In this document: positions 1-17,984 of the stretch, one piece after another
Numbering within the stretch: the first letter of the stretch is position 1
How the letters are laid out: the number at the start of each line of letters is the position of its first letter
Virus record (IMG/VR): IMGVR_UViG_3300025102_000151
Location: 1-31,585 of that record
Origin: a virus
Length of the DNA: 31,585 bases
Strand: one strand, 5' to 3'
Program-made: the position numbers and the translations under genes
Notes under the pieces: generated by a model
What the model was told of the DNA's origin: nothing
The model's database searches: none
What the model saw: the letters and a program-made list of their open reading frames with translations, nothing else

Positions 1-1430
1 AAAACGCAGCTCTTGCCGCAGCAAAAAAAGATAAAAGATTAGATGCTGCTGATGTTCAAAAATTAATAACACATTTTAAAACATCAAAATCTACAAACAA
101 TAATTTAAACAAAGATAACGTATCTCAAATGAAATCTAATTTAGATGCGGGTATTATATTTAGTGAAGATGAATTTAATGCAGCAATAGCAATTGCTACA
201 CAAAATCAAGACGAAAAAACTTTAATTAAATTAAGACAAATGGCTACTGATGCGCCAATCATTCAAGATCTTAATACTAAAACTGTTGCACAAATAGAAG
301 AAAAAATTAATTTTTTTACATCTTTTAAAAATAGAGAAGGTGGTATGACAATAGCTGAAGCTAATGAGTTAAGAATATCACAAGAATATTTAGCATCGCT
401 TACTACTTCATTAGATAAAGATCTAGTTACAACCGCAGCTAATAAAGGTGTTATTTCAATATCTGAAATAAATTTTGAAGATATATTAAATGGTGGCGAT
501 ATGACTGCGTTTATTGATGGTGCAACAAATAGAATTGCACAAGCAGATACAGCTGCAAGTTATTATAAAAGAGAAGTAAAATATTTAACAGCAACAGAAG
601 CAAACACTATTAAAAATGTATTTAATAGTGCAGATACACCAGAACAAATTATAGCTTTATCAAAAGGTATAGTTGAAGCGTTTGGTGTTAAATCAGATAA
701 AGTATTTAAACAAATTTCTAAAGACGAAAATGTTTTAGCTCATCTTGGCGGATTAGTTACAATGAATGATGGTATTCCTGGAGACAATGTAAAACTAGCA
801 GCTGAAGGTTTAATGATTTCTAAAAACGAAACTTTAGCAAAATTATATAAAATGTCGCCAACAGATGTAAGAAGCACAAATATAATTAAAAAATATGCTG
901 AAGTGTTTATTGGTAGTGAAGCAACATTAGATAGTACAATAGAATTAACTAATTTAATCTATGCTGCACAATTAAAAAAAGAAGGCAAAACTACTGCTAA
1001 CTTTTCTAATAATTCTTATCAAAAAGCATTTCTTATGGCAGCTGGCGGTACAACAGTTGATGGTTTTCCTTTTGATAAAAAAATGGGTGGGTTTGATGAA
1101 AACACTAGAGGCACAATGGTTCATATTCCACCTTGGTTACAAAGAGGCAAGTTTGAAAATGTAATTGAAATGTTAAAAACAGATCCACAATTAGTTTTAA
1201 AAGCATCATCAAATGGTAAATCAGCAGTAGCAATGGATGGCGAAGAAGTAAATATATTTACTAATGAAGATCCATATTTTGTAAGTGTTGGTAATGGTAA
1301 ATATAAAATTGCTAATGGCGATAATCCAGTAACGGGCCAAAACCCAGAATACTTACTTAATAGTGATGGTGGATATTTTATTATTGATATTAATAAAATT
1401 AAAGCAGAAATAATTACGGGTATGCAATAA
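1..1430 (+). CDS. internal virion protein, 5' end cut off by window
   Basis: The reading frame is open from the first full codon (position 3) through the ATG at 129, so the gene begins before the window and 129 is probably an internal Met. At least 475 residues are visible. The protein is mostly predicted helix, rich in Lys, Asn, Ala and Thr, with no signal peptide or membrane segment. It comes just before two large proteins of the podovirus ejection type and overlaps the next start by 1 nt. The order portal-scaffold-capsid-(missing)-this gene-ejection proteins-fibres suggests an internal virion/DNA-ejection component. I recognise no enzymatic motif; a catalytic part could lie in the missing N-terminus. 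Confidence 0.7.
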   Translation, partial: NAALAAAKKDKRLDAADVQKLITHFKTSKSTNNNLNKDNVSQMKSNLDAGIIFSEDEFNAAIAIATQNQDEKTLIKLRQMATDAPIIQDLNTKTVAQIEEKINFFTSFKNREGGMTIAEANELRISQEYLASLTTSLDKDLVTTAANKGVISISEINFEDILNGGDMTAFIDGATNRIAQADTAASYYKREVKYLTATEANTIKNVFNSADTPEQIIALSKGIVEAFGVKSDKVFKQISKDENVLAHLGGLVTMNDGIPGDNVKLAAEGLMISKNETLAKLYKMSPTDVRSTNIIKKYAEVFIGSEATLDSTIELTNLIYAAQLKKEGKTTANFSNNSYQKAFLMAAGGTTVDGFPFDKKMGGFDENTRGTMVHIPPWLQRGKFENVIEMLKTDPQLVLKASSNGKSAVAMDGEEVNIFTNEDPYFVSVGNGKYKIANGDNPVTGQNPEYLLNSDGGYFIIDINKIKAEIITGMQ

Positions 1431-4021
1431 TGAGTTTTTTTTTTGAAGAAGATACAGCTCTACAAGTAAAAAGCACAGAAAGTATATCTAAAGGCGAAAG
1501 AACTGATTTTATGGAAAATGCTAGTAAAGCATTTGACGCATTTCGTAGATCAGAAATATTTACATCTGAAGGTAATAACCAGGAAGAAGAATACGTTAAT
1601 ATAGTTAACATATTAACTGCTGCGGGTCATTCAGATTACATATCTCCATTAGAAGTTAATACAGATCCATTAAGTGAAGATGGCGACATGGGTGCAGTAT
1701 TTAAAACTAGAGACGAATTACAAAAAGATTTTTGGGATCAAGTTGCAGTATTACAAACTACTGATGAAAATTTAAAAAATAAATTAACAGAAGCGGGTTT
1801 AGATAATTTTGAGAATATGCAAAAAACTATTGCAACTAAAACTCAAAACGCCTGGAAAGATTATACTGAAGTAAACGAAAGAGCTACTACTGCTGGATGG
1901 TGGGGTGGCATGGGAGGTATGGCGGGAGCTGCATTTACAGATCCTATTATGCTAATGACTATACCCATATCTTTTGGTTATTCTGTACCCGCTGGTTTTA
2001 GTGCCGCTGCATTAAAAATTGGATTAATGGAAGGTATTATTGGTGGTGTTGCAGAAACAATAATACAATTAAAAGCACAACCATACAGAGCAGAATTAGG
2101 TTTTGAAGATGCTGGTTTAGAAACGGGTATAAAAAATGTTGCAATGGTTGGTGCTGCATCAGCTACATTATCTCCATTACTATTCGGTGCATTTAAAGCA
2201 TTTGGTAAAAGTATAGATGCTGGTAAAAAGTTTTTACACAAACAAACTCCAGAAGATTTACAAACTATTTATAAAGAAATGGGAGATATAAATCCTAAAC
2301 TAAAAGACAAAGATTTAACAGAATATCAGTTACCGAAAAAAGATAGTCCGTTTGAAGATACAGCTCCAGCTAGGGTTGAGCATAACGAAAGATTAGATAC
2401 AACAGCAAGAGCTATTGAAAACGGAGAACCCGTAGATTTACCACCAATAAGATCTACGTTAGAAACACCAACACCAACTAAAATAGAATTTAACGATATA
2501 ACTGCAAGCAACCCAGCTATTAAAAATACTTATGATGAAGTAAGTAATATAAAAAATAAAATTGATGGAGAACAAATTACAAAAACTGGAGAAGCTAAAC
2601 AAGTAGTTGAAGGTAATCCATTTTTATTTGATATTAAACCATCTAAATTAGAAAGAACAGAATTTGAAAATAAAAATATAAAAAATTATAAAGGCGATAA
2701 ATCAGAACCTATAATTACAACTATTATTAATAATAGATATAAAATTTTAGATGGCCACCACAGAGCAAAAATAGCAGATAAAGAAAATACACTTGCTAGA
2801 ATAATTGTAATACCAGAAAAAGCATACAAAGAAATGAAATTAAAAGGTATTCATCAAGCAGAAATGTATAAAGAATTTATTGCTACTTATAATCCAATAA
2901 AACAAATTACAGAAACACCAAAGGTTGCAGAAGTAGAAACTGTATCTAAAAATTTTAATAAAGAACCAACTAGATTAGCTGACGATCAGAATAATGTAAG
3001 AGATTTTGATGTACCTAATGAAGCAGCTTATAGAAATCAAGCGTCTGTTCTTGACGGAGATATGTTTGATGAGGGAACTTCAGCAGCCATTAAAGAAGTT
3101 GCTGGTGCTGGATCTGCTGCAAAGACAGTTCCAACAGATAATCCTTTAGCTAAAACCCAAGATTTAGTATCAAAATCCCAACGTACAGAAGCAGCTCCTT
3201 CATCAACAGTTTTAGCAACTGCACAAAGTAAACCACCACTTGTTCTTGGTTCTATTACTAATTCTGTTGGCGATTTTAATTCCATTGGTAAACAATTATA
3301 TCACAAATCAGATAATTTCAACGAAATTTATAAGGCATTATCTGCAAAAATTAATGAGGTTAAAACTGAATTACAACCATTAGCAACTAAATATAGTGGC
3401 GACTTAAAGGCAAGAATTAAAGAAAAAGCTAGTTTAAATGAAAAATTAGCAAGTGATCCTACTTTTACACCGCAAAATATGTCTGATGTTTTAGGTACTA
3501 GAATTACAGTTGACACGATTAACAACGCAAAATTACTCATGGCAGAATTAAATCGAAAATTTAAGTTAATACTTAATGATGATTTTTTAGATGATGTAGG
3601 TAGAACTATATCACACAATACAGATTACAGAGCTATTCATGCACAAATATTAACTAAAGATGGTTATTCTTTTGAACTACAAATAAGATTAAAAGAGTTA
3701 GAAAATTTAACTGAACAATCACACGCTATCTATAAAAAAACAAAATACCAAAAAGATCAAATATCTGCCAAAGAATTAACTGATTTATTAACTCAACAAA
3801 CAACAATAAATAAAAAATTATCAAAAAAATATTTTGAAATAAAAGAAAAAGAATTTAACAGATTAAAAAGCGGAGATCCATTAGATCGAGAAATACCTTA
3901 TGCTTTAAGAATTGATGATGCTACTGGAGAAAAAGTACCAGTAACTATAACTGCTAGAGAAGCATTTGAACAAGCAGCTAAAGATGAGACAATGTTAAAT
4001 AGATTGAAAGATTGCGTATGA
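1430..4021 (+). CDS. internal virion polyvalent-like protein with ParB-like segment and RelA/SpoT domain
   Basis: 863 residues. Residues 155-260 are Gly/Ala-rich and hydrophobic (GWWGGMGGMAGAAF, then further apolar stretches), as in ejected proteins that meet membranes. Residues about 398-470 resemble a ParB/sulfiredoxin-like fold with a DGHHR motif at 441-445. A Thr/Ser/Ala-rich linker (about 540-605) follows. Residues about 622-775 match RelA/SpoT synthetase domains in order: RxKxxxS (R662, K664, S668), DVLGTR (686-691), DYRAIH (732-737), ELQIR (749-753) and a QSHAIYK end motif. These equal the ATP-binding, Mg-binding, guanosine-stacking and catalytic Glu positions of Rel enzymes, so activity is plausible: (p)ppGpp synthesis or tRNA-end pyrophosphorylation. 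Placement among ejection genes suggests the enzyme is packaged and injected. It overlaps the next gene by ATGA. Confidence 0.8.
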   Translation: MSFFFEEDTALQVKSTESISKGERTDFMENASKAFDAFRRSEIFTSEGNNQEEEYVNIVNILTAAGHSDYISPLEVNTDPLSEDGDMGAVFKTRDELQKDFWDQVAVLQTTDENLKNKLTEAGLDNFENMQKTIATKTQNAWKDYTEVNERATTAGWWGGMGGMAGAAFTDPIMLMTIPISFGYSVPAGFSAAALKIGLMEGIIGGVAETIIQLKAQPYRAELGFEDAGLETGIKNVAMVGAASATLSPLLFGAFKAFGKSIDAGKKFLHKQTPEDLQTIYKEMGDINPKLKDKDLTEYQLPKKDSPFEDTAPARVEHNERLDTTARAIENGEPVDLPPIRSTLETPTPTKIEFNDITASNPAIKNTYDEVSNIKNKIDGEQITKTGEAKQVVEGNPFLFDIKPSKLERTEFENKNIKNYKGDKSEPIITTIINNRYKILDGHHRAKIADKENTLARIIVIPEKAYKEMKLKGIHQAEMYKEFIATYNPIKQITETPKVAEVETVSKNFNKEPTRLADDQNNVRDFDVPNEAAYRNQASVLDGDMFDEGTSAAIKEVAGAGSAAKTVPTDNPLAKTQDLVSKSQRTEAAPSSTVLATAQSKPPLVLGSITNSVGDFNSIGKQLYHKSDNFNEIYKALSAKINEVKTELQPLATKYSGDLKARIKEKASLNEKLASDPTFTPQNMSDVLGTRITVDTINNAKLLMAELNRKFKLILNDDFLDDVGRTISHNTDYRAIHAQILTKDGYSFELQIRLKELENLTEQSHAIYKKTKYQKDQISAKELTDLLTQQTTINKKLSKKYFEIKEKEFNRLKSGDPLDREIPYALRIDDATGEKVPVTITAREAFEQAAKDETMLNRLKDCV

Positions 4022-6555
4022 GCCAGTTTAGAAAATGTATTATTAATGGTGCTAAAGAGGGTTTGATAAGTCAAACACAAGCTCAAAAATTACAAGATAT
4101 GTTAAATGAGTTAGAAGATTTTTTTACATATCAAAAAGGTTTAGATAGATCACAAGCTCAAAGAGCTGCTGCTAAAAAAACTTACGATCAATTAAAAATA
4201 GAAAGTGCAGAAAAATTAAGAGCTACATTACTACAAAGAAAAGTAATGGATCAAATCCAGGATAGATTATTAAATTATAGAAATAGTAAAGGCGAAGTAG
4301 ATGTACCTAATGCAGTTAGATCTATGTATGCGCATGATAATTATTCAACTGAATTTAGTATTGAAAGATTAGTTGATATGGAAAGAGGTAAAGCTCACGC
4401 ATTAATGAATAATGTTTTAGATCAGCTAGCTTATAAAATAGGTGGCAGACAAACTAAATTACAAAAAACTAATCTTAAATTAATGATTAGAGAATTAATG
4501 GGAGAAAATACTGGTAATCAAAATGCTAAACAATTAGCTGAAGCCTGGAAACAAACTGCTGAACATTTAAGAAAAAGATACAATAGTTTTGGTGGTAAAA
4601 TTTTATCAAGAAAAGATTGGGGATTACCACAAATACATGACACATTATTAGTTAGAGCTGTCGCTAAACAAGATTGGATTGATTATGTTTTACCAAAACT
4701 AGATCTTGATAAAATGACAGATGAAAGCACGGGTTTACCCTTTACAGATAAAAGTATTCAAAAAGCATTAAGTCAAGTTTACGATAATATTTCAACAGAA
4801 GGTATGGCAACTTTCAAACCTGGTACTAATTCTTATGGTAAAACATTTGCTAATAGAAGAACCGATCACAGATTTTTAGCTTTTAAAAATGCAGATGCTT
4901 GGATGGAATATCAAACAAGATTTGGTAATCCAGATCCTTTTGTAACTATGATGGAGCATATAAACGGCATGAGTAGAGACATAGCTTTATTAAAAACATT
5001 GGGGCCAAATCCAGATGCAACACACTCATTCTTATTACAAACTATTAAGAAGCAATCAACATTAGATACAGCAGCAGAAGCACAAGGTAAATTTAAAAGA
5101 AAAAAAACTAAACTTTCTGGTAGTGAACAAGATAGAGCAAATGCAATAGTTGAAAGTATTAATAATTTATATGCTTATCACAAAGGTACTTTAAACCAAC
5201 CAGTTAATGCTTTTTTTGGAAATACGTTTGCTGGTTTAAGACAAATATTAACTTCTGCACAATTAGGAGGAGCAAGTATTATGGCTCTTTCAGATTTTAA
5301 CTGGTCAAGAATAACATCTAAATTTAATGGTTTACCATCTTTCAAAGCTAACAAAATGGCTACTAAATTATTATACGATGGTATTAAAAAAGATAGTTCA
5401 TTAAGTAGAACTGCTATGCGATTAGGATTAATTGCAGAAATGCAATCAACAGTAGCTGGAGTTCAAGCAAGATATTTAGATGACATAGATACACCTATGT
5501 TAGCTAAAAGAATTTCTGATGTAATTTTAAGAGGTTCTGGATTATCTCATTTAACACAATCTGGTAAGTGGGGTTTTGGTATGTCTGTATTAGGAACACT
5601 TGCAGATGAAAGCGGTAAAGTTTTTAATAAATTAGATCCAAATCTGCAAAAAGCATTAACAAAATATGGTATAGATGATGAGGCTTGGGATATTATTAGA
5701 GCTACTAAATTATATGATGCTGGTATTGATGAACCTTCTATGGTTGGTAAAAATATAACTTTTTTAAGACCCGATGATATTCATGCAAGAGCAGATCTAG
5801 CTCCAGATGTAAGAGAAGATTTAACAACAAGGTTAATGAATTTTGTTACTTCTGAAACTAACTTTGCTGTACCTACTGCATCTGCAAAAGGTAGAACTAT
5901 TTTAGCGGGTAGTACCAAAGCGGGTACTGTACCTGGAGAATTGATGAAATCAGTTTTAATGTATAAAAACTTTGCAATCACGTTAGGTTATACTCATTTA
6001 GCTAGAGGGTTTCAGCAAGTAGGTTTAAAAGGTAAGTTTAAATATTTAGTACCAATGATTGTAACGGGTGGTGTTATGGGTGCTTTAGCTTATGAATTAA
6101 AACAAATAGCAGCTGGTAAAAAACCTACTGAATTAAAAGATATGGGAGTTAGATATTGGATAAATTCATTAGTGTATGGTGGTGGATTAGGAATATTTGG
6201 AGATTTTTTATTTGCAGATCAAAACAGATATGGTGGATCTTTGCAAAAAACTATTGCTGGGCCAGCTGTTGCTTTTATAAATGATGCAATACAATTGACT
6301 ATTGGTAATGCTATGCAGCTAGCCTCTGGGGAAAAAACTAATGCGGGTAAAGAATTAGCGGCATTTATACAAAGATACACTCCTGGTTCAACACTTTGGT
6401 ACACCAGGTTAGCATTTGAAAGATTAATTATAGATACACTTGAAAGGTTAATTAACCCAGATTTTGATGCAGATAATAGAAGAAAAGAAAGAAACTTAAA
6501 AAATCGTACTGGACAAGAGTATTGGTGGTCTCCAGGCGAAATTACACCAAATTAG
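4018..6555 (+). CDS. large internal virion / DNA ejection protein
   Basis: The ATG at 4018 overlaps the previous stop as ATGA; a TTG six bases upstream is possible but less likely. 845 residues. The N-terminal 100 residues are charged and probably coiled coil. The middle is helical. The last 250 residues have apolar stretches (for example LVPMIVTGGVMGALAY and NSLVYGGGLGIFGDFLF) and end in an RYTPGSTLWYTRLAFER motif that I recognise from the C-termini of large virion proteins next to tail genes in podoviruses. Role by context: part of the ejectosome that carries DNA through the envelope. No hydrolase or nuclease motif was recognised. Confidence 0.75.
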   Translation: MSQFRKCIINGAKEGLISQTQAQKLQDMLNELEDFFTYQKGLDRSQAQRAAAKKTYDQLKIESAEKLRATLLQRKVMDQIQDRLLNYRNSKGEVDVPNAVRSMYAHDNYSTEFSIERLVDMERGKAHALMNNVLDQLAYKIGGRQTKLQKTNLKLMIRELMGENTGNQNAKQLAEAWKQTAEHLRKRYNSFGGKILSRKDWGLPQIHDTLLVRAVAKQDWIDYVLPKLDLDKMTDESTGLPFTDKSIQKALSQVYDNISTEGMATFKPGTNSYGKTFANRRTDHRFLAFKNADAWMEYQTRFGNPDPFVTMMEHINGMSRDIALLKTLGPNPDATHSFLLQTIKKQSTLDTAAEAQGKFKRKKTKLSGSEQDRANAIVESINNLYAYHKGTLNQPVNAFFGNTFAGLRQILTSAQLGGASIMALSDFNWSRITSKFNGLPSFKANKMATKLLYDGIKKDSSLSRTAMRLGLIAEMQSTVAGVQARYLDDIDTPMLAKRISDVILRGSGLSHLTQSGKWGFGMSVLGTLADESGKVFNKLDPNLQKALTKYGIDDEAWDIIRATKLYDAGIDEPSMVGKNITFLRPDDIHARADLAPDVREDLTTRLMNFVTSETNFAVPTASAKGRTILAGSTKAGTVPGELMKSVLMYKNFAITLGYTHLARGFQQVGLKGKFKYLVPMIVTGGVMGALAYELKQIAAGKKPTELKDMGVRYWINSLVYGGGLGIFGDFLFADQNRYGGSLQKTIAGPAVAFINDAIQLTIGNAMQLASGEKTNAGKELAAFIQRYTPGSTLWYTRLAFERLIIDTLERLINPDFDADNRRKERNLKNRTGQEYWWSPGEITPN

Positions 6556-6596
6556 TTATAGACAATAAAGACTTTTTTAAATAAAGAAAAACATAG

Positions 6597-6617
6597 TGTA
6601 GGATTTTCATGCCTACA
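6597..6617 (+). other. small hairpin between ejection and fibre genes
   Basis: In the 94-base gap before the tail fibre gene, TGTAGG and CCTACA form a 6-bp stem with a 9-base loop, followed by AAACTATATTTTTC. It could be a weak terminator or a processing site. I see no convincing promoter in this gap. Confidence 0.3.
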
Positions 6618-6649
6618 AACTATATTTTTCACAACCCAAAATAAAAATT

Positions 6650-8617
6650 ATGACGATTAGCACGACAACTATTTTAAATTCATATAGTGGAAATGGATCC
6701 ACAACTGCGTTTGCGTACACGTTTCCAATAAATACGACATCTGAAATTACAGTAATTGAGAGATCTGCTACTGGAACAGAGACAGTTAAATCTGAAGGAA
6801 CTGGATCAACAAACTATGGTATAGCTGACAATGGCGCATCGGGTGGTACAATTACTATGGTTACAGCTCCCGCATCGGGAACTACTTTGCTTATCCGTAG
6901 AAATACAAGTTTTACACAAGAAACTGATTATGTAGCAAACGATCCTTTTCCAGCTGAAACTCACGAAGACGCTTTGGATAAACTCCAAATGCAAAACCAA
7001 GAGCTTGAAGAAGAATTAAATAGATCATTAAAAATTTCAAGAACAAACTCTATGACAAGTACAGAGTTTACTACGTCTGCTTCTGATAGAGCTTCTAAAG
7101 TTTTAGCATTTGATAGTTCTGGAGAATTATCTGTAACCCAAGAATTAGGTACTTTTAAAGGATCTGATGCAACAGTTACAACTGCTGCTTATGTTCAAAG
7201 AGATATAATTAAATCAACGACAGCTGCTCAACTTAACAATGTTTATATTAATGTTGCTGATAGTGTTGTTGGAGATAGCTTAACAGACACCGATCACTTT
7301 GCATTATTACTTGATGCTAAATCTGCGGCTGATAGTGCTACCGCTGCTGCTACATCCGCAACTAATAGTGCAAACTCTGCTACCGCTTCAGCTTCATCTG
7401 CTTCAACTGCATCTGGTCATAAAGATACAGCATCAACTAAAGCTACTGAAGCCGCTAATTCTGCTACTGCTGCCGCAAGTTCTGCAACAGCTGCGGCTAA
7501 CTCCGCTGATGCTTTTGATGATGTTTATCTTGGAACTAAATCTTCTGATCCATCAACTGATAATGATGGTGATGCTCTTGCAGAAGGTATGCTCTATTTT
7601 AATTCTACAAGCGATAGTTTACGTGTTTACAATGGTTCGTCTTTTCAAGATGCAGCTGTTGATACGACATCTTTTTTAACACTTACTGGAACACAAACAT
7701 TAACAAATAAAACTCTTACAGCTCCTAAAATTGGTACTTCTATTTTAGATACTGGCGGAAACGAATTAGCTAAATTAACAGCTACTGGTTCAGCAGTAAA
7801 TGAATTTACAGTTGCCAACGCTGCAAGTAGCAATGCTCCAAGATTATCATCAACTGGTGGAGACAGTAATATTGATTTAGATTTATTAGCCAAAGGTACT
7901 GGTCATATAACTGTTAGAGGAAATACTAATTCTGGTGCTATTCAATTTAATTGTGAAAGTAACAGTCATGGTCAAATTGTAAAATCACAACCTCACTCTG
8001 CTGCTGTTACAAATGAAATGTTATTACCAGCTGGTGCTAGCTCAACTTTAGTATCTTTAGTTTCAACAGATACACTTACAAACAAAACTTTAACATCGCC
8101 AAAAATAAATGAAGATGTAGCAGTAACTTCAACTGCAACAGAGCTAAACGTATTAGATGGTATTACAGCTGTTGTTGGAGAATTAAATGCTTTAGATTTA
8201 GGCAGTACAGCCATTGGAACTGCAATAGCTAGTAAAGCTGTGGTTTTAGATGCTAATAAAGATTATGCTGGAATAAGAAGATTAAGTGTAACAAGAGCAA
8301 ACATTCCACAAGTAGCATTATCATCTTCATCAAATGCTGTTGCTTGGGATGCTTCTGCTGCTCCAAACGCTTATCATATAACAACAGAAAACACGACTTT
8401 TTCTGCTCCAACTAATAATGTTGAAGGTGCTTTTATTTGCATTGAGATAAATTACAATGGTTCACACACTATTGCTTTTAATACAATTTTTGAATTTGCA
8501 GCATCAACTGCTCCAACATTTACATCAACCGATGCAAAAACGGATATATTAGTTTTTCGTTTTAATGGAGCTGTATATCAAGAGGTTGGAAGAACATTAA
8601 ATTTAAGTGAAAGTTAG
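6650..8617 (+). CDS. tail fibre protein with T7-gp17-like N-terminal domain
   Basis: 655 residues. The first 130 residues (SGNGSTTAFAYTFP, then LLIRRNTSF and ALDKLQMQNQELEEEL) match the N-terminal virion-binding domain of T7-type tail fibres. Residues about 220-290 are Ala/Ser/Thr-rich heptad-like repeats, probably a trimeric shaft. TLTNKTLTxPKI occurs twice (around residues 348 and 482) and ATELNVLDGITA follows, both common in marine phage fibres. The C-terminus is probably a beta-rich tip. The protein attaches the receptor-binding apparatus and contacts the host. It is the first of four tail genes. Confidence 0.85.
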   Translation: MTISTTTILNSYSGNGSTTAFAYTFPINTTSEITVIERSATGTETVKSEGTGSTNYGIADNGASGGTITMVTAPASGTTLLIRRNTSFTQETDYVANDPFPAETHEDALDKLQMQNQELEEELNRSLKISRTNSMTSTEFTTSASDRASKVLAFDSSGELSVTQELGTFKGSDATVTTAAYVQRDIIKSTTAAQLNNVYINVADSVVGDSLTDTDHFALLLDAKSAADSATAAATSATNSANSATASASSASTASGHKDTASTKATEAANSATAAASSATAAANSADAFDDVYLGTKSSDPSTDNDGDALAEGMLYFNSTSDSLRVYNGSSFQDAAVDTTSFLTLTGTQTLTNKTLTAPKIGTSILDTGGNELAKLTATGSAVNEFTVANAASSNAPRLSSTGGDSNIDLDLLAKGTGHITVRGNTNSGAIQFNCESNSHGQIVKSQPHSAAVTNEMLLPAGASSTLVSLVSTDTLTNKTLTSPKINEDVAVTSTATELNVLDGITAVVGELNALDLGSTAIGTAIASKAVVLDANKDYAGIRRLSVTRANIPQVALSSSSNAVAWDASAAPNAYHITTENTTFSAPTNNVEGAFICIEINYNGSHTIAFNTIFEFAASTAPTFTSTDAKTDILVFRFNGAVYQEVGRTLNLSES

Positions 8618-8625
8618 GATATAAT

Positions 8626-9252
8626 ATGTACGCATTAATAACAGACGGATCAATTTCAAAATATATTAATAATCCAAAATCTTTAGTAATAGGAGACGTA
8701 AGGTATCCAGCTAAAATATTTCAACTGTGGTCAAAATCAGAATTAAATGCCATAGGTATTTATGAAATAACTTTTGATGACAGTAATAAAAAAGATGAGA
8801 AATGGTACATCAACACTAATCAATCATTTACTTATGATGCTTCTGCTGGAACTGTAACTGCAAGTTATGGATCGGCTACTGCTAAAGCTCATGCAGACAC
8901 TACTTGGTCTCAACAAGATAGTGATGATGGAGATTTACCAGATGACAAAGAAGTTGGAGATATAAAAACTAGAGGATTAAAATATAATTTAATACAAACT
9001 TTAAAATCACAAGTAGCCAATGAACTTTCTAAAACTGATTGGTACATAACTAGAAACACAGAAAAATCTACTGCTATACCAAGTACTATATCTACTCACA
9101 GAGACGCAGTTAGAACTAAACAAGCAGAAATGGAAACTGCTATAACAAACGCAAGTGATACTCCAGCATTAGAAACTTTATACACATACACAGAGCAAGA
9201 TGATGGTTCTGTTACTAGACCATTAGGCGAACTTCCAATACTGGAGAGTTAA
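8626..9252 (+). CDS. tail fibre assembly-like / tail accessory protein
   Basis: 208 residues. The N-terminal part is a small beta-rich region (MYALITDGSISKYI). The C-terminal third has the pattern KTDWYITRNTEKSTAIPSTI followed by a helix with spaced Arg, typical of the C-termini of tail fibre assembly chaperones and DUF4376-like proteins. An acidic stretch (DSDDGDLPDDKEVGD) lies between. It sits directly after the fibre gene and shares its last base with the next start. It may help fold or attach one of the neighbouring fibres. Confidence 0.6.
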   Translation: MYALITDGSISKYINNPKSLVIGDVRYPAKIFQLWSKSELNAIGIYEITFDDSNKKDEKWYINTNQSFTYDASAGTVTASYGSATAKAHADTTWSQQDSDDGDLPDDKEVGDIKTRGLKYNLIQTLKSQVANELSKTDWYITRNTEKSTAIPSTISTHRDAVRTKQAEMETAITNASDTPALETLYTYTEQDDGSVTRPLGELPILES

Positions 9253-10637
9253 TGATTATTCTTGGCACTAATTCTGTAAAAGCAGCTGGTGGTTATGATG
9301 TAGCTAACTCATGTAGGTTTAATGTAGGAAGTAATGATTTTCTATCAAGAACTATTGGAACACCTACTGATGAAGATAAATGGACATTTAGTGTTTGGTT
9401 AAAAATAACAGGAGAAGCACCATCTGTTCAATATGGAATACTATCAGCTGGTAATTATCCAAGTGCTTATGAAACTATCCATCTAAATGGGGGCGATCAA
9501 TTATTTTATCATTATAATGATGGTGGTGGTGCAAATCATGGTGCTGCTAAATATTCTGGGATTATAAGAGACCCATTTGCATGGTATAATTTAATAGTTT
9601 CAAGAAATGGTACTGCTGTTAAAGTTTATATTAATGGAAATGATGTTACAACAACTGTTACCTCATACAATAATAGCACTAATGTAATAAATAAAAGTGG
9701 TGGTACTTTAAGAATTGGTCATAGTGAAAGAGAAACTTCTGGTAGAAGCTGGAATGGTTATATGAGTGAAGTGGTATTTTGTGATGGACAACTACTAGAT
9801 CAAACATCATTTGGAGAATTTGACGAAGATAGTGGAATATGGAAACCAGTAGATGTATCTGGTTTAACCTTTGGCAACAATGGATTTTATTTAGACTTTG
9901 AAGATAGTTCAGCTTTAGGAAATGATGTATCTGGTAATAACAATGACTTCACAGCTAGTAACCTTACAGCAATAGATCAGACTACTGATACTTGTACAAA
10001 TAATTTTATGACACTAAATCCTTTATCAACAGATAGTGGTGTTACTTTATCAGAAGGAAATACTGAAAGTGACTATGATGCAAGTGTAGGAAATGCAAAA
10101 GGAAATTTTGGATTAACAAAGGGTCGTTGGTATTGGGAAGTAAAACTAACAAATTCAACAAGTGGTTATCCAATGATAGGCATTGGAAGTATGAACGAAT
10201 CTCAAATGCAAAAAACAACAGGTGGAAGTTATCCAGGCGGATTTACAAATTCTTATGGTGTTTATGGTGTAAATTTAAGATTATATGCTAATGGTGTAAA
10301 TGAGGGAACACAAGGCTCGTCATATACATCAGGAGATATATTTGGAATTTATTTAGATTTAGAAAGTGGAACAAAAACAATTAAATGGTATAAAAATGGC
10401 TCATCAGTATTAAGCTATAATATTACAAATGCTGGAGATGATTACCCTTATACTTGCATAGATTATAATGGTGGAGAATCAAGTGTGAATGTTAATTATA
10501 ATTTTGGTAATCCAGCTTATTCAATTTCGTCTGGTAATACAGATGATAATGGATATGGCAACTTTGAATATTCTCCAAATATTTCATCAACAAAATATTA
10601 TGCAGTTTGCACTAAAAATTTAGCGGAGTTTGGATAA
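9252..10637 (+). CDS. LamG- and SPRY-domain tail protein, putative receptor binding
   Basis: 461 residues. Residues about 20-180 look like a laminin-G/concanavalin-type sandwich (WTFSVWLKI, WYNLIVSRNGTAVKVYINGN, GTLRIGHSERE, WNGYMSEVVFCDG). A linker GNDVSGNNNDFTASNL is common in marine phage fibres. Residues about 285-420 have SPRY/B30.2 features (KGRWYWEVKL, MIGIGS, IFGIYLDLESGTKTIKWYKNG). Both domain types bind glycans or proteins, so a receptor-binding role is inferred. There is no signal peptide. It shares one base with both neighbours. Confidence 0.7.
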   Translation: MIILGTNSVKAAGGYDVANSCRFNVGSNDFLSRTIGTPTDEDKWTFSVWLKITGEAPSVQYGILSAGNYPSAYETIHLNGGDQLFYHYNDGGGANHGAAKYSGIIRDPFAWYNLIVSRNGTAVKVYINGNDVTTTVTSYNNSTNVINKSGGTLRIGHSERETSGRSWNGYMSEVVFCDGQLLDQTSFGEFDEDSGIWKPVDVSGLTFGNNGFYLDFEDSSALGNDVSGNNNDFTASNLTAIDQTTDTCTNNFMTLNPLSTDSGVTLSEGNTESDYDASVGNAKGNFGLTKGRWYWEVKLTNSTSGYPMIGIGSMNESQMQKTTGGSYPGGFTNSYGVYGVNLRLYANGVNEGTQGSSYTSGDIFGIYLDLESGTKTIKWYKNGSSVLSYNITNAGDDYPYTCIDYNGGESSVNVNYNFGNPAYSISSGNTDDNGYGNFEYSPNISSTKYYAVCTKNLAEFG

Positions 10638-11716
10638 TGGCTTATACAACTGTCGATAACCCAGAACTTTATTTCCAATGCAAACTCTATACTGGAAATG
10701 GTAGCACAAATGCCATTACTTTAGATGGTTCTGAAAATATGCAACCAGATTGGGTTTGGGTAAAGGATAGAGATACTTCTGGTTATAATCATGTTTTAAA
10801 TGATAATGTAAGAGGTGTTACAAAATATTTAAGATCAAACTTAACAAACGCAGAAGCAACAATTACTGATGCAATTACTTCATTTGATAGTGATGGATTT
10901 ACTTTAGGAAGTGATGCTTCAAATGGAGAAAGTAATAGAAACACTATTAATTATGTTTCATGGAATTGGAAAGCTGGAACATCATTTAGTAATGATGCTA
11001 GTGCAACAAGCATTGGAAGTATAGATAGTTCTGGCAGTGTATCAACCGATGCTGGATTTAGTATTATATCCTATCAAGGAACTGGAAGTGCTGCAACAGT
11101 TGCTCACGGATTAGGTGTTGTACCAAAAATGATTATTATAAAAGATAGAGATAATGGAACAGGTTTTAATTGGAGAGTTTATCATCATAAAAATACATCA
11201 GCACCAGAAACAGATGCTTTGAATTTAAATTTAACTAATGCCACTAATGATAATTCTACTTATTGGAATGATACTGCACCAACATCTTCAGTATTTACTA
11301 TTGGAACAGACGCATCATTAAATTATAGTGGAGATGATTACATAGCCTACTGCTTTGCAGAAAAAAAAGGCTACTCAAAATTTGGAAGCTACACAGGTGG
11401 ATCAGATCCATTCGTCTATCTTGGTTTTAAACCAGCTTTCGTTATGTTCAAAAATGCAAGTGCTACTGAAAACTGGAGAATAGTTGATAACAAAAGAGAT
11501 GTAGATAATCCAGTTGTTCAACATTTATATCCAAATCTATCTAATGCAGAGGGAAGTGGTGCTTCTTATAATGATTTTGTAGATTTTACTGCACAAGGTT
11601 TTAAAATTATAAGTGGTTCTGGAGAAATAGATGGTTCTGGAAATACAATAATTTATATGGCTTTCGCAGAAGCACCATTTGTTACGTCATCTGGTGTGCC
11701 AACAACTGCTCGATGA
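10637..11716 (+). CDS. tail fibre protein with three repeats (DUF7483-like)
   Basis: 359 residues. A unit of the form P-x-W/M/F-V/I-x-V/I/F-K-D/N followed by a W-R/N-x-V/I strand occurs three times: PDWVWVKDRD, PKMIIIKDRD and PAFVMFKNAS. A two-domain head with the GSAATVAHGLGVVPKMIIIK motif and the PFVTSSGVPTTAR end are typical of marine phage fibre tips. It probably forms the distal fibre together with the LamG/SPRY protein. It overlaps the preceding gene by one base, and a small gene follows after three bases. Confidence 0.7.
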   Translation: MAYTTVDNPELYFQCKLYTGNGSTNAITLDGSENMQPDWVWVKDRDTSGYNHVLNDNVRGVTKYLRSNLTNAEATITDAITSFDSDGFTLGSDASNGESNRNTINYVSWNWKAGTSFSNDASATSIGSIDSSGSVSTDAGFSIISYQGTGSAATVAHGLGVVPKMIIIKDRDNGTGFNWRVYHHKNTSAPETDALNLNLTNATNDNSTYWNDTAPTSSVFTIGTDASLNYSGDDYIAYCFAEKKGYSKFGSYTGGSDPFVYLGFKPAFVMFKNASATENWRIVDNKRDVDNPVVQHLYPNLSNAEGSGASYNDFVDFTAQGFKIISGSGEIDGSGNTIIYMAFAEAPFVTSSGVPTTAR

Positions 11717-13626: not shown

Positions 13627-14252
13627 AGTGGGTTAAGGGAGTTGCTTATACTTTTTTAGGTATTCTTTGGCTTATTATAATTTTAGGTACAGCTGCATTC
13701 GCTGTTGGTAATCAAACAAATACATCTGGATCTAACACAGCTATTGAAGGTAACTATACTGGAGGATCCACAACTTACGAAAGCGGATCTACGTCATCCA
13801 GTACAACTACAAACAGCACAACATCTAATATTCGATCAGCTCCATACACATCTGCTGCGCCATCGTTGGGTTCAATGAACAATTGTGCATTAGCTTTATC
13901 TGCTGGGGTACAAAATTTCTCAATAGGTGTATCAGCTGGCAGACATTTTATAGATCCCGTATGTCAAACAATTAATCTATCTAAAGCTCTACATGGTATG
14001 GGGATGAAGGTTGCAGCTATAAGTGTTTTGTGTGGTAATCCAGAAATATTCCATGCAATGAGTGCAGCGTTTGCAAATACTCCGTGTCCAATTGAAGGCA
14101 AGATTGGTGCAGAGGCAACTAAAATATTATTTGAAAAATATAATGGCAAGATGCCAACTTACGAACAGTATCTAAAACTTGAATTAAAAAAAATAAAAGA
14201 TCAAAAAAATAAAATTAAAATAGAAAAGATTAAACCTAACATAGTTAGATAA
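13623..14252 (+). CDS. exported protein, unknown function
   Basis: 209 residues. It has an N-terminal signal or anchor (VAYTFLGILWLIIILGTAAFA), then a Ser/Thr/Gly linker (about 30-75). A conserved-looking central domain has four Cys (CALALSAGVQNFSIGVSAG, DPVCQTINLSKALHGMGM, ISVLCGNPEIF, NTPCPIEG). The tail is Lys-rich and helical. Relatives seem common next to lysis genes in pelagiphage-like genomes (memory only). A periplasmic or virion-surface role is inferred. Confidence 0.65.
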   Translation: MKWVKGVAYTFLGILWLIIILGTAAFAVGNQTNTSGSNTAIEGNYTGGSTTYESGSTSSSTTTNSTTSNIRSAPYTSAAPSLGSMNNCALALSAGVQNFSIGVSAGRHFIDPVCQTINLSKALHGMGMKVAAISVLCGNPEIFHAMSAAFANTPCPIEGKIGAEATKILFEKYNGKMPTYEQYLKLELKKIKDQKNKIKIEKIKPNIVR

Positions 14253-15649
14253 TGAAATTTTATATTATATTGGCAGCTTTACTTTGGTTGCTATTATCCT
14301 GGTTTGCCAATTCAGTTGGTTTAAAAGCTGAAGAAATTACAACTGGTAACTTATTAACCAATGGTAATTTTGAAACGGGTAATGCTAATGGCTGGACAAC
14401 AAGCGGTAATACCCAGGTAGTCAACGATTGCTGCGAGCTAAATGGTGTATCAAGTAATTATGATTTAGAGTTTGGCGATAGCGGATCTATTTCACAAGAT
14501 GTTAATTTAACAACTAATACTATTACCCAGAATATGTTGGATAATGGTATTACTTTAAACCAAGTAACCGAGGTGCAAAACGGAGAATGTAATGTATCTG
14601 GTTGTTGGGGAGGCAGCGGAGCTGCGGATCAATTTACTATAAATCTTAATATTAAAGATAGCTCTGGTAATGTTATTGCAACCATGCAATCTACTAGAAC
14701 AGATGTAACGGGTATCAATGGAGCTAATTTTATTGATACTCTTATCTATACTGGTACGGGTTCAAACGTAGGTAACACTACTATTTCTGCCATAGATGCA
14801 AATGCTCCAGCAACTCTTGGTGGGCCAAACATAGACAACATATCATTAACCATGACTTATAATAATGTTGTTTTACAAGTAGAAACTAAACAAGCATTAC
14901 AAGCATTTGAAGAACAAGTTTTATTTCAAGAAGAAGAACAATTTTTTACTGAAGAATTTGTAGAAATATTTACTGAAAAAATAGAAACAATTGCAGCTGC
15001 TGCATTACCACCAGAAGAAAAAGCCGTAGAGATAACAGCTGCTGTATTAGAGTTTGAAGAAAAGACAGAAACTAAAGTAACTAAAGCAGAGATCCAAACA
15101 GCTTCTTTTTTACCACCACCAACAATGATGATGGAAGAAAAGGAAGAAGAAAAACCAGCTAAAATAGCAATGACTATTATAGAAGAAACTGAAAAGGAGA
15201 GTACAAATGTACGGGAAGAAAAAACCAGCGAAAGTAAAGCCGAAGAAAACAAAACAGAAACCGAAGAAAAGGTAACTGCTAAAGCAGAAACTAAAACTAA
15301 TAAAACTAATACTAAAGTAAGTAAATTAGAAGCGTCTATGGATAAGGTAGATGCAGTAGTTAAAGATGCTGCTAAAAATTTAGAAGTAAAAAGTATTATA
15401 AAGCTAGATGCTATGCAAAGTGATAGCTCTATTAACCTGGCTGTCTATAACAACCAGGCGTTTTATAAGAGTAAAGATATATATCTTAATCAAGTTATGA
15501 TGTTTGATAACAGAGACATCTATAACAATGTAACCTTGGTTAATTACATTAGTAATGATCCAATAAACATTAAAGAAAATATCTTACACGACATCAATAA
15601 AAGAAAAGAAAAACTATTAATAGAAATAGAGGTACTTAAAAATGGATAG
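14252..15649 (+). CDS. exported jelly-roll protein with Glu/Lys-rich stalk
   Basis: 465 residues. The signal peptide is residues 1-26 (IILAALLWLLLSWFANSV). Residues 33-205 start NLLTNGNFETGNANGWTTSG, the signature of a carbohydrate-binding jelly roll, with Cys pairs (DCCEL, ECNVSGCWG). Residues 210-390 are a highly charged Glu/Lys/Thr stretch, likely an extended stalk, followed by a helical C-terminus. It may bind envelope polysaccharide during lysis, or decorate the surface. It overlaps the next gene by 8 bases. Confidence 0.65.
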   Translation: MKFYIILAALLWLLLSWFANSVGLKAEEITTGNLLTNGNFETGNANGWTTSGNTQVVNDCCELNGVSSNYDLEFGDSGSISQDVNLTTNTITQNMLDNGITLNQVTEVQNGECNVSGCWGGSGAADQFTINLNIKDSSGNVIATMQSTRTDVTGINGANFIDTLIYTGTGSNVGNTTISAIDANAPATLGGPNIDNISLTMTYNNVVLQVETKQALQAFEEQVLFQEEEQFFTEEFVEIFTEKIETIAAAALPPEEKAVEITAAVLEFEEKTETKVTKAEIQTASFLPPPTMMMEEKEEEKPAKIAMTIIEETEKESTNVREEKTSESKAEENKTETEEKVTAKAETKTNKTNTKVSKLEASMDKVDAVVKDAAKNLEVKSIIKLDAMQSDSSINLAVYNNQAFYKSKDIYLNQVMMFDNRDIYNNVTLVNYISNDPINIKENILHDINKRKEKLLIEIEVLKNG

Positions 15650-15952: not shown

Positions 15953-16029
15953 TGGTCTGGGTGGCTGGATTTGAACCAGCGATCCCTAGCTCCCAAAGCT
16001 AGTGCGTTACCAGGCTACGCTACACCCAG
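15953..16029 (-). tRNA. tRNA-Pro (UGG)
   Basis: Read on the minus strand this folds as a full cloverleaf: acceptor CTGGGTG/CACCCAG, D stem GCGT/ACGC, anticodon stem CTAGC/GCTAG with loop TTTGGGA (anticodon TGG), and T stem GCTGG/CCAGC with loop TTCAAAT. The CCA end is encoded. It is antisense to the late genes. It can be a functional phage tRNA, the attP core (integration into a host tRNA-Pro), or both. Confidence 0.95.
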
Positions 16030-16778: not shown

Positions 16779-17984
16779 TCATCCTTTAGTTATTTGATTA
16801 ATAGCAGCTTTTCTTTGTTTCTCATTCAAATTCAAATCTCTGATGTAGTTAGCTTGTCTAATATCTTTAGAGTTACCAAATCTATTATCCATTTGCTTAT
16901 CAGTTAAAATTTTAAGTTCTTCCATACGAGATATACTCCACTTTCTAAAAGGAGACATCCCATTTGGCCAATGGATCCCTAATCTTTTAGCAGAAACTTT
17001 AACTCTTTTTCTAGCTCCGTGGATAGGTACATTAAACACTCTCTTAAATGTTCTTCGTTCCATTTTATTTATATCTGGATTATTAAAAGTTACGTTTCTA
17101 TGTGTAATTGGAAACATCTGCGCTTTCATCCATATACTAAACAGCTCTAAACATTGATCTGATACTTCAACAAATCGTCTTTGGGTCTTTACCTGGTAGG
17201 GTCTAAAGTTATTTTCTTCATTGATTGAGTGATCTAAAAACACACCACCAGCATTAAAATCTACATTCTCATAACAGATCCCAAGCAGCTCACTTAATCT
17301 GGCTCCAGTTTCAGCAGCACATTTGTACAAAGTTTTTAATTGTATATCTGGTTCTTTATTTACAACAGCTAACAGCTCTGGAGTAGTAGGCATCCACTTG
17401 ATTTGAGTATTGTAATCTTTAAAATATTTTGGCCCGAATTTAAAATTAGCAATGGTATAGTCAATCTTCCATTGTCTGCTGGCACAAAAATTTACGAATT
17501 TTTTAAATTCTAATACCGCAGCTCTAATAGTTACTCTACCAATGGTTTCAGTTTTTTTCTTATAGAAACCGAACCCATCTTTTTTAACCCATTGTAGAGC
17601 TTTACTATTTTTAATACCAAGTAAAGTTACTTCTCTAAAATCTGATAATAAATAATCTGCTAAATATTGCTTATTGATATGGGGTCTAACATGATTGTTA
17701 ATGTATGCTACTTGCATATCTTTATATTTAGATGTCGTGTCTGGATCGCTATTAATAACTTTAAAGTATTCATCAAAAGCAAAATTAAATTCTATTTTTT
17801 GATCTATGACATCTATCTTATCTGAATTTTCTAGTTTAGATCTTAACGCTTCAGCTTTCCTTTTCTCATTCAAACCAAAAGTTTCTTTATTTTGTTTTTT
17901 AGTTTTGCCGTTTACCTGGTAAACAACTTGAACGCATAGTTTTTTACCGCCAGCTCTGTCAACAGTAACAACTTGAACTTTCAT
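16779..17984 (-). CDS. int: tyrosine recombinase, phage integrase
   Basis: 401 residues. An N-terminal arm-binding-like beta region (about 1-45) is followed by a SAM-like core-binding domain (about 65-185) and a catalytic domain (about 195-385). Visible catalytic positions: R229 (ETGARLSELLG), K267 in the beta hairpin (VKTQRR), R347 and Y380 (ANYIRDL). The usual His of HxxR is Ser344 (SPFRKW) and the usual His/Trp before the Tyr is Asn371 (FGNS). It joins attP to a host attB, probably tRNA-Pro. GGAGG lies 11 bases before the ATG, inside the end of the upstream gene. A DNA invertase role is unlikely given the attP-like region beyond the operon end. Confidence 0.9.
   Translation of the reverse strand: MKVQVVTVDRAGGKKLCVQVVYQVNGKTKKQNKETFGLNEKRKAEALRSKLENSDKIDVIDQKIEFNFAFDEYFKVINSDPDTTSKYKDMQVAYINNHVRPHINKQYLADYLLSDFREVTLLGIKNSKALQWVKKDGFGFYKKKTETIGRVTIRAAVLEFKKFVNFCASRQWKIDYTIANFKFGPKYFKDYNTQIKWMPTTPELLAVVNKEPDIQLKTLYKCAAETGARLSELLGICYENVDFNAGGVFLDHSINEENNFRPYQVKTQRRFVEVSDQCLELFSIWMKAQMFPITHRNVTFNNPDINKMERRTFKRVFNVPIHGARKRVKVSAKRLGIHWPNGMSPFRKWSISRMEELKILTDKQMDNRFGNSKDIRQANYIRDLNLNEKQRKAAINQITKG

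What the first reader, a model, noticed from the sequence alone, without database searches (positions are those of the whole stretch)
3290..3760. RelA/SpoT-type synthetase domain inside a virion ejection protein
Residues 622-775 of the 863-residue protein keep all the main motifs of Rel synthetases in order: RIKEKAS, DVLGTR, DYRAIH, ELQIR and SHAIYK. R662, K664, D686, Y733 and E749 fit the ATP, metal, guanosine and catalytic positions. The host gene lies among ejection proteins, so an alarmone-synthetase-like enzyme could be packaged and injected with the DNA, reprogramming growth at once or, like toxSAS enzymes, pyrophosphorylating tRNA ends. Large phage polyvalent proteins with mixed enzymatic domains are known in general; a virion-borne Rel domain with an intact site in this phage type seems little described.
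Basis: partly seen in the sequence, partly recalled or inferred. Interest (0 to 1): 0.85.

Follow-up and report, generated by a model that had tools for sequence, protein, structure and literature searches.

The report
Alarmone-synthetase domain in phage ejection protein
An uncultured temperate marine podovirus carries, in the gene slot for a capsid protein injected ahead of its DNA, an intact-looking enzyme of the kind bacteria use to make the starvation alarm signal, so the phage may deliver a ready-made growth brake at the moment of infection.

Summary
Confirmed: the 863-aa ORF 1430-4021(+) contains a RelA/SpoT synthetase domain (Pfam PF04607, E 1.6e-11, residues 662-772). Its AlphaFold model matches RelP/RelQ (Z 13.7/13.4; unrelated folds at most 7.5) over residues 627-816, the extent of a complete small alarmone synthetase. 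R662, K664, K672, D686, R691, Y733, H737, E749 and Q751 are invariant in 27 aligned rows. dN/dS is 0.13-0.52.

The gene sits at the epsilon15 gp16 position, between gp15-like and gp17-like virion genes of a temperate podovirus. The domain is one module of a polyvalent ejection protein: N-terminal helical region and C-terminal tail are constant, a central slot swaps between ParB-like, ADP-ribosyltransferase and other modules, and one contig lacks Rel but keeps the tail.

Most likely: a virion-packaged effector whose C-terminal half reaches the cytoplasm and makes a (p)ppGpp-type product. Fold and conserved site are shown; packaging, injection, activity and acceptor are inferred. RelA/SpoT domains in phage polyvalent proteins (Iyer 2017) and MuF virion toxins (Apk2) are known. 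A podovirus ejection-protein chassis with a near-universal Rel domain was not found in the papers searched. New variant of a known kind.

The parts
1430..4021 (+). 863-aa polyvalent ejection-type protein, in the epsilon15 gp16 gene position
1430..2434 (+). Residues 1-335: constant N-terminal helical region with hydrophobic segments near residues 164-255; ends in an 'ARxEHxERL' motif
   Evidence: PHROG 342 internal virion protein E 0.0047; hhalign E 5.9e-7 to the same-position protein of MT835618; hydropathy
2462..2929 (+). Residues 345-500: swappable module slot
   Evidence: different unrelated modules in relatives; ART-PolyVal above cut-off in L011
2645..2830 (+). Residues 406-467: ParB-like module (GHHR) occupying the slot in this phage
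   Evidence: phrog_17560 E 3.3e-4 and phrog_2159 ParB-like E 0.031; L006 carries the same module; no Pfam hit
2930..3268 (+). Residues 501-613: linker with conserved FDVPNE and AKTxPT motifs
3308..3877 (+). Residues 627-816: small-alarmone-synthetase-like domain
   Evidence: AF2 model; VIA-align Z 13.7 to 6fgk, 13.4 to 5dec; Foldseek
3413..3745 (+). PF04607 RelA_SpoT core, residues 662-772, with the catalytic residues
   Evidence: conservation; reference alignment
3878..4021 (+). Residues 817-863 and stop: constant C-terminal tail ending ...RLKDCV
   Evidence: kept in the Rel-less relative L057; a Cys near the C-terminus also occurs in same-position proteins of other phages, although profile comparison was not significant
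3..1430 (+). gp15-like virion protein, truncated by the window start
   Evidence: phrog_992 E 5.4e-8
4012..6555 (+). gp17-like virion structural protein
   Evidence: phrog_684 E 3.7e-161; relatives in phiV10, VP2, epsilon15, Pelagibacter phages

Best explanation
The ORF is a polyvalent ejection protein of a temperate podovirus. It is made late, packed inside the head with the gp15- and gp17-like proteins, and expelled before the DNA. Its N-terminal hydrophobic helical part works at the cell envelope, and the C-terminal half, with the swappable slot and the Rel domain, ends up in the cytoplasm. There the Rel domain binds ATP and a metal ion and moves a pyrophosphate onto a 3'-OH acceptor, most likely GDP/GTP, giving an immediate (p)ppGpp-type pulse that brakes host growth or biases the lysis-lysogeny choice. 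Shown here: fold, conserved catalytic residues, purifying selection, gene position, modular architecture. Inferred: packaging, topology, activity, acceptor, effect.
For: PF04607 E 1.6e-11. Fold matches RelP/RelQ at Z 13.7/13.4 over about 170 residues. ATP, metal, guanine-stacking and catalytic residues invariant. dN/dS of the Rel domain 0.13-0.52 in eleven of twelve pairs, the other undefined. The syn2/3/4 signature positions look RSH-like (R691, H737, often IR) rather than Apk-like RYT/GxN/YH. Gene order equals epsilon15 gp15-gp16-gp17; epsilon15 ejects internal proteins, and the C-terminal part of T7 gp16 is placed in the cytoplasm (PMC8954989). All 24 complete N-terminal relatives carry Rel, while L057 lacks it but keeps linker and tail, as expected of an accessory effector. 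Rel alleles move between backbones: N and Rel trees conflict with strong support.
Against: No virion proteomics or assay. Homology of the N-terminus to gp16 of epsilon15/phiV10 reaches only a 27-column end motif. The 'PK' lysine and the Ser of YxSxH are missing and R753 is often Ser, so the acceptor site is not a plain GDP/GTP site. L057 begins at a contig edge. No in vivo phenotype is known.
Confidence: 0.55

Rival explanations
1. Same delivered effector, but the acceptor is not guanine nucleotide: it pyrophosphorylates tRNA CCA ends (toxSAS-like) or adenine nucleotides (Apk-like), acting as a toxin on translation or ATP pools.
For: CapRel (Z 10.7) and Tas1 (Z 10.0) are in the structural list. 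Virion-linked MuF Apk2 domains make only (p)ppApp. The acceptor loop differs from RSH: no PK lysine, A/R instead of S before IH.
Against: RelP/RelQ score clearly higher. Apk signature residues RYT/GxN/YH are absent. No immunity or hydrolase gene recognised among the window ORFs scanned.
Confidence: 0.3
2. The Rel fold is catalytically inactive and serves as a structural or nucleotide-sensing part of the ejection protein.
For: S668 not conserved, R753S in 12 of 27 rows, PK lysine lost. Near-universal presence in this clade could mean a structural role.
Against: Every ATP/Mg/catalytic residue is invariant down to about 45-50% identity, and L057 does without the domain.
Confidence: 0.12
3. The domain acts in the producing cell late in infection or after induction, not in the newly infected cell; packaging is incidental.
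For: Late operon position; the phage is temperate (integrase, repressor).
Against: The gene is fused within an ejection-protein architecture with N-terminal hydrophobic part and constant tail; free SAS genes exist in other phages, so a fusion would not be needed.
Confidence: 0.1

Closest known systems
Phage polyvalent proteins with RelA/SpoT domains (Iyer et al. 2017, PMC5512222)
   Same: Multidomain phage proteins near late genes combining RelA/SpoT with ParB-like, ART and lysozyme domains; predicted to be injected
   Different: Those cited are in (pro)phages of epsilon-Proteobacteria and Spirochaetes, and MuF fusions; here the chassis is a podovirus ejection protein at the epsilon15 gp16 position, with Rel as the constant domain and another module swapped
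Apk2 MuF polymorphic toxins (PMC12226406)
   Same: RelA/SpoT-fold synthetase fused to a virion-associated protein of temperate phages
   Different: MuF head protein, C-terminal toxin end, immunity genes iapK/aph1 and Apk signature; none of these found here
Small alarmone synthetases RelP/RelQ
   Same: Fold, extent and catalytic residues (Z 13-14)
   Different: Stand-alone cytoplasmic enzymes with the PK lysine and YxSxH; here embedded in an 863-aa virion-type protein
Epsilon15 gp16 / phiV10 PhiV10p19 (phrog_1145)
   Same: Gene position between gp15 and gp17; Cys near the C-terminus; a short HxxAL...G.PVD-type motif
   Different: No Rel domain; overall sequence homology not detectable
Exported alarmone synthetases (PMC12691689)
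   Same: Rel-type synthetases delivered out of the producing cell
   Different: Export domains listed there are WXG/LXG, XopAD, MuF, DUF4157 and Rhs/PAAR; no podovirus ejection protein

Membership tests
RelA/SpoT synthetase domain (PF04607) | Profile match over the curated cut-off | tested here: met
   44.9 bits against 27; 48 bits
RelA/SpoT synthetase domain (PF04607) | Rel/SAS fold | tested here: met
   AF2 pLDDT 72.7; Foldseek E 6e-7; Z 13.7 to RelP
RelA/SpoT synthetase domain (PF04607) | ATP R/K/K, Mg Asp, stacking Tyr, catalytic Glu | tested here: met
   R662, K664, K672, D686, Y733, E749 invariant and aligned with E. coli RelA
RelA/SpoT synthetase domain (PF04607) | Pyrophosphokinase activity | not testable with these tools
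   needs purified protein
Long RSH (Rel/RelA/SpoT) | HD hydrolase region plus TGS/ACT regulatory domains in the same protein | tested here: not met
   Pfam shows only PF04607
Apk2 MuF toxin | N-terminal MuF domain | tested here: not met
   no MuF hit at E <= 1 in Pfam or E <= 0.1 in NCBIfam
Apk2 MuF toxin | Apk signatures RYT / GxN / YH at syn2-4 | tested here: not met
   GTR / AIH or RIH / IR or VS-IS
toxSAS acting on tRNA | Basic patch for the tRNA acceptor stem (FaRel2 K28, R29; PMC11559606) | tested here: inconclusive
   No toxSAS sequence was aligned; CapRel is structurally similar at Z 10.7
Phage polyvalent protein | Several unrelated effector domains in one polypeptide, swapped between relatives, encoded among late genes | tested here: met
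   slot swaps ParB-like/ART-PolyVal/others; late-gene context
Podovirus ejection protein (gp16 position) | Gene position between gp15- and gp17-like virion genes | tested here: met
Podovirus ejection protein (gp16 position) | Homology of the N-terminal region to known ejection proteins | tested here: inconclusive
   PHROG 342 E 0.0047; MT835618 E 5.9e-7; epsilon15/phiV10 only an end motif
Podovirus ejection protein (gp16 position) | Present in virions and ejected | not testable with these tools
   needs proteomics

The most novel reading that the evidence does not exclude
A marine podovirus lineage ships a ready-made alarmone synthetase in its capsid and fires a stringent-response signal into the host before any phage gene is expressed, with the accompanying slot domain varied between phages as a second effector.
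Probability: 0.35. Interest if true: 0.85.

Novelty: new variant of a known kind. Interest (0 to 1): 0.6.

Why it matters
If true, a podovirus would alter host second-messenger state at DNA entry through a virion enzyme, which could help explain how temperate phages of small marine bacteria set infection outcome before transcription. The swap slot, the constant Rel domain and the Rel-less natural variant give a ready comparison set. It would also add a delivery route for alarmone synthetases to those listed in PMC12691689.

Tried and rejected
tblastn of the whole protein against 50,697 phage records found nothing; the N-terminus alone gave one meaningless hit. hhalign of the N-terminus with the phiV10/epsilon15/BcepC6B/HB2107 gp16 set gave only a 27-column end motif, and with the Pelagibacter phage Skadi and Dunaliella virus SI2 proteins nothing. 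C-terminal tails: not significant by profile, so the shared Cys is only an observation. The AF2 model of the N-terminus was too poor to search (pLDDT 54). ParB-like module: no Pfam or useful NCBIfam hit. Host from the tRNA-Pro: best identity 80-85% in genomes of the order and class of the Pelagibacter MAG, not resolved. A search of 289 genomes of that class with the N-terminal profile found only the phage-like MAG contig. FaRel2 and Apk2 sequences were not aligned. Rejected: chance motif match; structural-only reading as the main explanation (invariant active site). Literature searches on Rel/alarmone with internal virion or ejection proteins found no paper on a Rel domain in podovirus ejection proteins, within an open-access library only.

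Full report
Observation. The ORF at 1430-4021(+) encodes 863 aa. Pfam places RelA_SpoT at residues 662-772 with E 1.6e-11, and one search finds the same stretch at 3413-3745. An AlphaFold model of residues 614-863 built from 11 relatives has pLDDT 72.7 and pTM 0.62. Foldseek's 50 listed best PDB matches are all Rel/SAS enzymes. VIA-align gives Z 13.7 to B. subtilis RelP, 13.4 to RelQ, 10.7 to CapRel and 10.0 to Tas1, then falls to 7.5 and below for unrelated folds. The matched range, residues 627-816, covers a whole small alarmone synthetase including its C-terminal helices. Long RSH enzymes align over only about 120-135 residues.

Active site. In 27 aligned rows (some near-identical; 19 in the thinned set) R662, K664, K672, D686, G689, R691, D717, D718, Y733, R734, H737, Q739, E749 and Q751 do not vary. 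Aligned with E. coli RelA, two other long RSHs, a SAS and the RSH of a Pelagibacter relative, they fall on the canonical ATP, metal, guanine-stacking and catalytic positions. Departures: S668 varies; the 'PK' lysine is missing and the loop before Y733 is longer, with R725 invariant; the Ser of YxSxH is Ala or Arg; R753 is Ser in 12 rows. Roles of individual residues are from general knowledge of RelSeq/RelA and from PMC12226406 for the syn signatures. Nei-Gojobori dN/dS of the Rel domain is 0.13-0.52 in eleven of twelve pairs (the other pair has no synonymous change in the domain), whereas the slot shows values near or above 1 where unrelated modules are compared, which is an artefact of aligning non-homologous modules.

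Context. The window is a 31,585-base virus record of a temperate podovirus: integrase, CI-like repressor, terminases, portal and capsid. The gene lies between a phrog_992 and a phrog_684 protein. Epsilon15, phiV10, VP2, BcepC6B, Skadi and HB2107-3I show a protein in the same position, and so does the unannotated gut record MT835618. In epsilon15 these are gp15, gp16 and gp17, and epsilon15 is reported to eject internal virion proteins (PMC8954989). The N-terminal 335 residues match the MT835618 protein (hhalign E 5.9e-7 over 254 columns), which has a GH108 lysozyme domain after the shared region. They weakly match PHROG 342 (E 0.0047), in the same profile region hit by the VP2 and Skadi proteins. 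Homology to gp16 of epsilon15 itself is not shown beyond a short motif.

Modularity. Twenty-four complete IMG/VR relatives found through the N-terminus all carry the Rel domain; six more run off their contigs before it. Of 17 contigs found through gp17 that cover the gene, 16 have Rel; the exception, L057, retains the end of the N-terminal region, the FDVPNE linker and the C-terminal tail but no Rel domain. That contig starts inside the gene, so its N-terminus is unseen. The slot at residues 345-500 holds a ParB-like module here and in L006, ART-PolyVal in L008, L011, L033 and relatives (E 3.8e-7 in L011), and other modules elsewhere. L044 has a second ART-like module after Rel. Trees of the N-terminus and of Rel plus tail conflict with strong support: L002 joins the window in the first (100/100) and L036 in the second (100/97). 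Rel alleles therefore move between backbones.

Mechanism. Shown: fold, conserved site, selection, gene position, module exchange. Inferred from T7/epsilon15 biology: the protein is packaged, expelled first, its hydrophobic helices act at the envelope, and the C-terminal half reaches the cytoplasm (PMC8954989 places T7 gp16-C there). Inferred from the residues: ATP-dependent pyrophosphate transfer, most likely to GDP/GTP. A few copies could suffice in a tiny marine cell: the exported synthetase SaEAS turns over about 100,000 per minute (PMC12691689); this is an argument of plausibility, not a measurement here.

Comparison. Iyer et al. 2017 described RelA/SpoT domains in phage polyvalent proteins and MuF fusions and proposed an alarmone-like response. 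Apk2 MuF proteins of temperate phages make (p)ppApp. The new element is the podovirus ejection-protein chassis, the constancy of Rel in this clade, the swap slot, and the Rel-less variant.

Limits. Host unknown: one homologue lies on a contig binned as Candidatus Pelagibacter, but its large ORFs look like phage structural genes only; the tRNA-Pro gives no exact match. 'Marine' rests on that bin and on the kinship of the neighbouring gene to Pelagibacter and Vibrio phages, not on sample records. No experiment was possible. The literature searches cover only the open-access library.

Noticed in passing
L044 (also held as L083), L044 6189-9158: A 989-aa relative has an ADP-ribosyltransferase-like stretch inserted between the Rel domain and the C-terminal tail, in addition to a different module in the usual slot.
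   Followed up: partly
L057 3-557: A relative of the ejection protein without Rel domain or recognisable slot module, keeping linker and tail; the contig begins within the gene.
   Followed up: partly
L022 3810-6989 (MT835618): Human-gut phage protein in the same gene position, 1059 aa, with a GH108 lysozyme domain after the shared N-terminal region.
   Followed up: partly
C-termini of the gp16-position proteins in L017-L024 and window 3990-4018: Proteins in this gene position from diverse podoviruses end with a Cys close to the C-terminus; profile comparison was not significant.
   Followed up: partly
window 15953-16029: tRNA-Pro (tgg) on the minus strand close to the integrase (16779-17984); possible attachment site or phage tRNA, 80-85% identical to the best alphaproteobacterial matches.
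   Followed up: partly
window 9252-11716: Two adjacent proteins, one with LamG-like and SPRY domains (461 aa) and one DUF7483 (359 aa), matching consecutive parts of phrog_19943; possibly a split virion or fibre protein.
   Followed up: no
window 14252-15649: 465-aa ORF without any significant Pfam, PHROG or NCBIfam hit.
   Followed up: no
L046 (PAFP01000050) 1-9572: Contig in a Candidatus Pelagibacter MAG whose large ORFs look like phage structural genes only; likely a phage contig binned with the host.
   Followed up: partly
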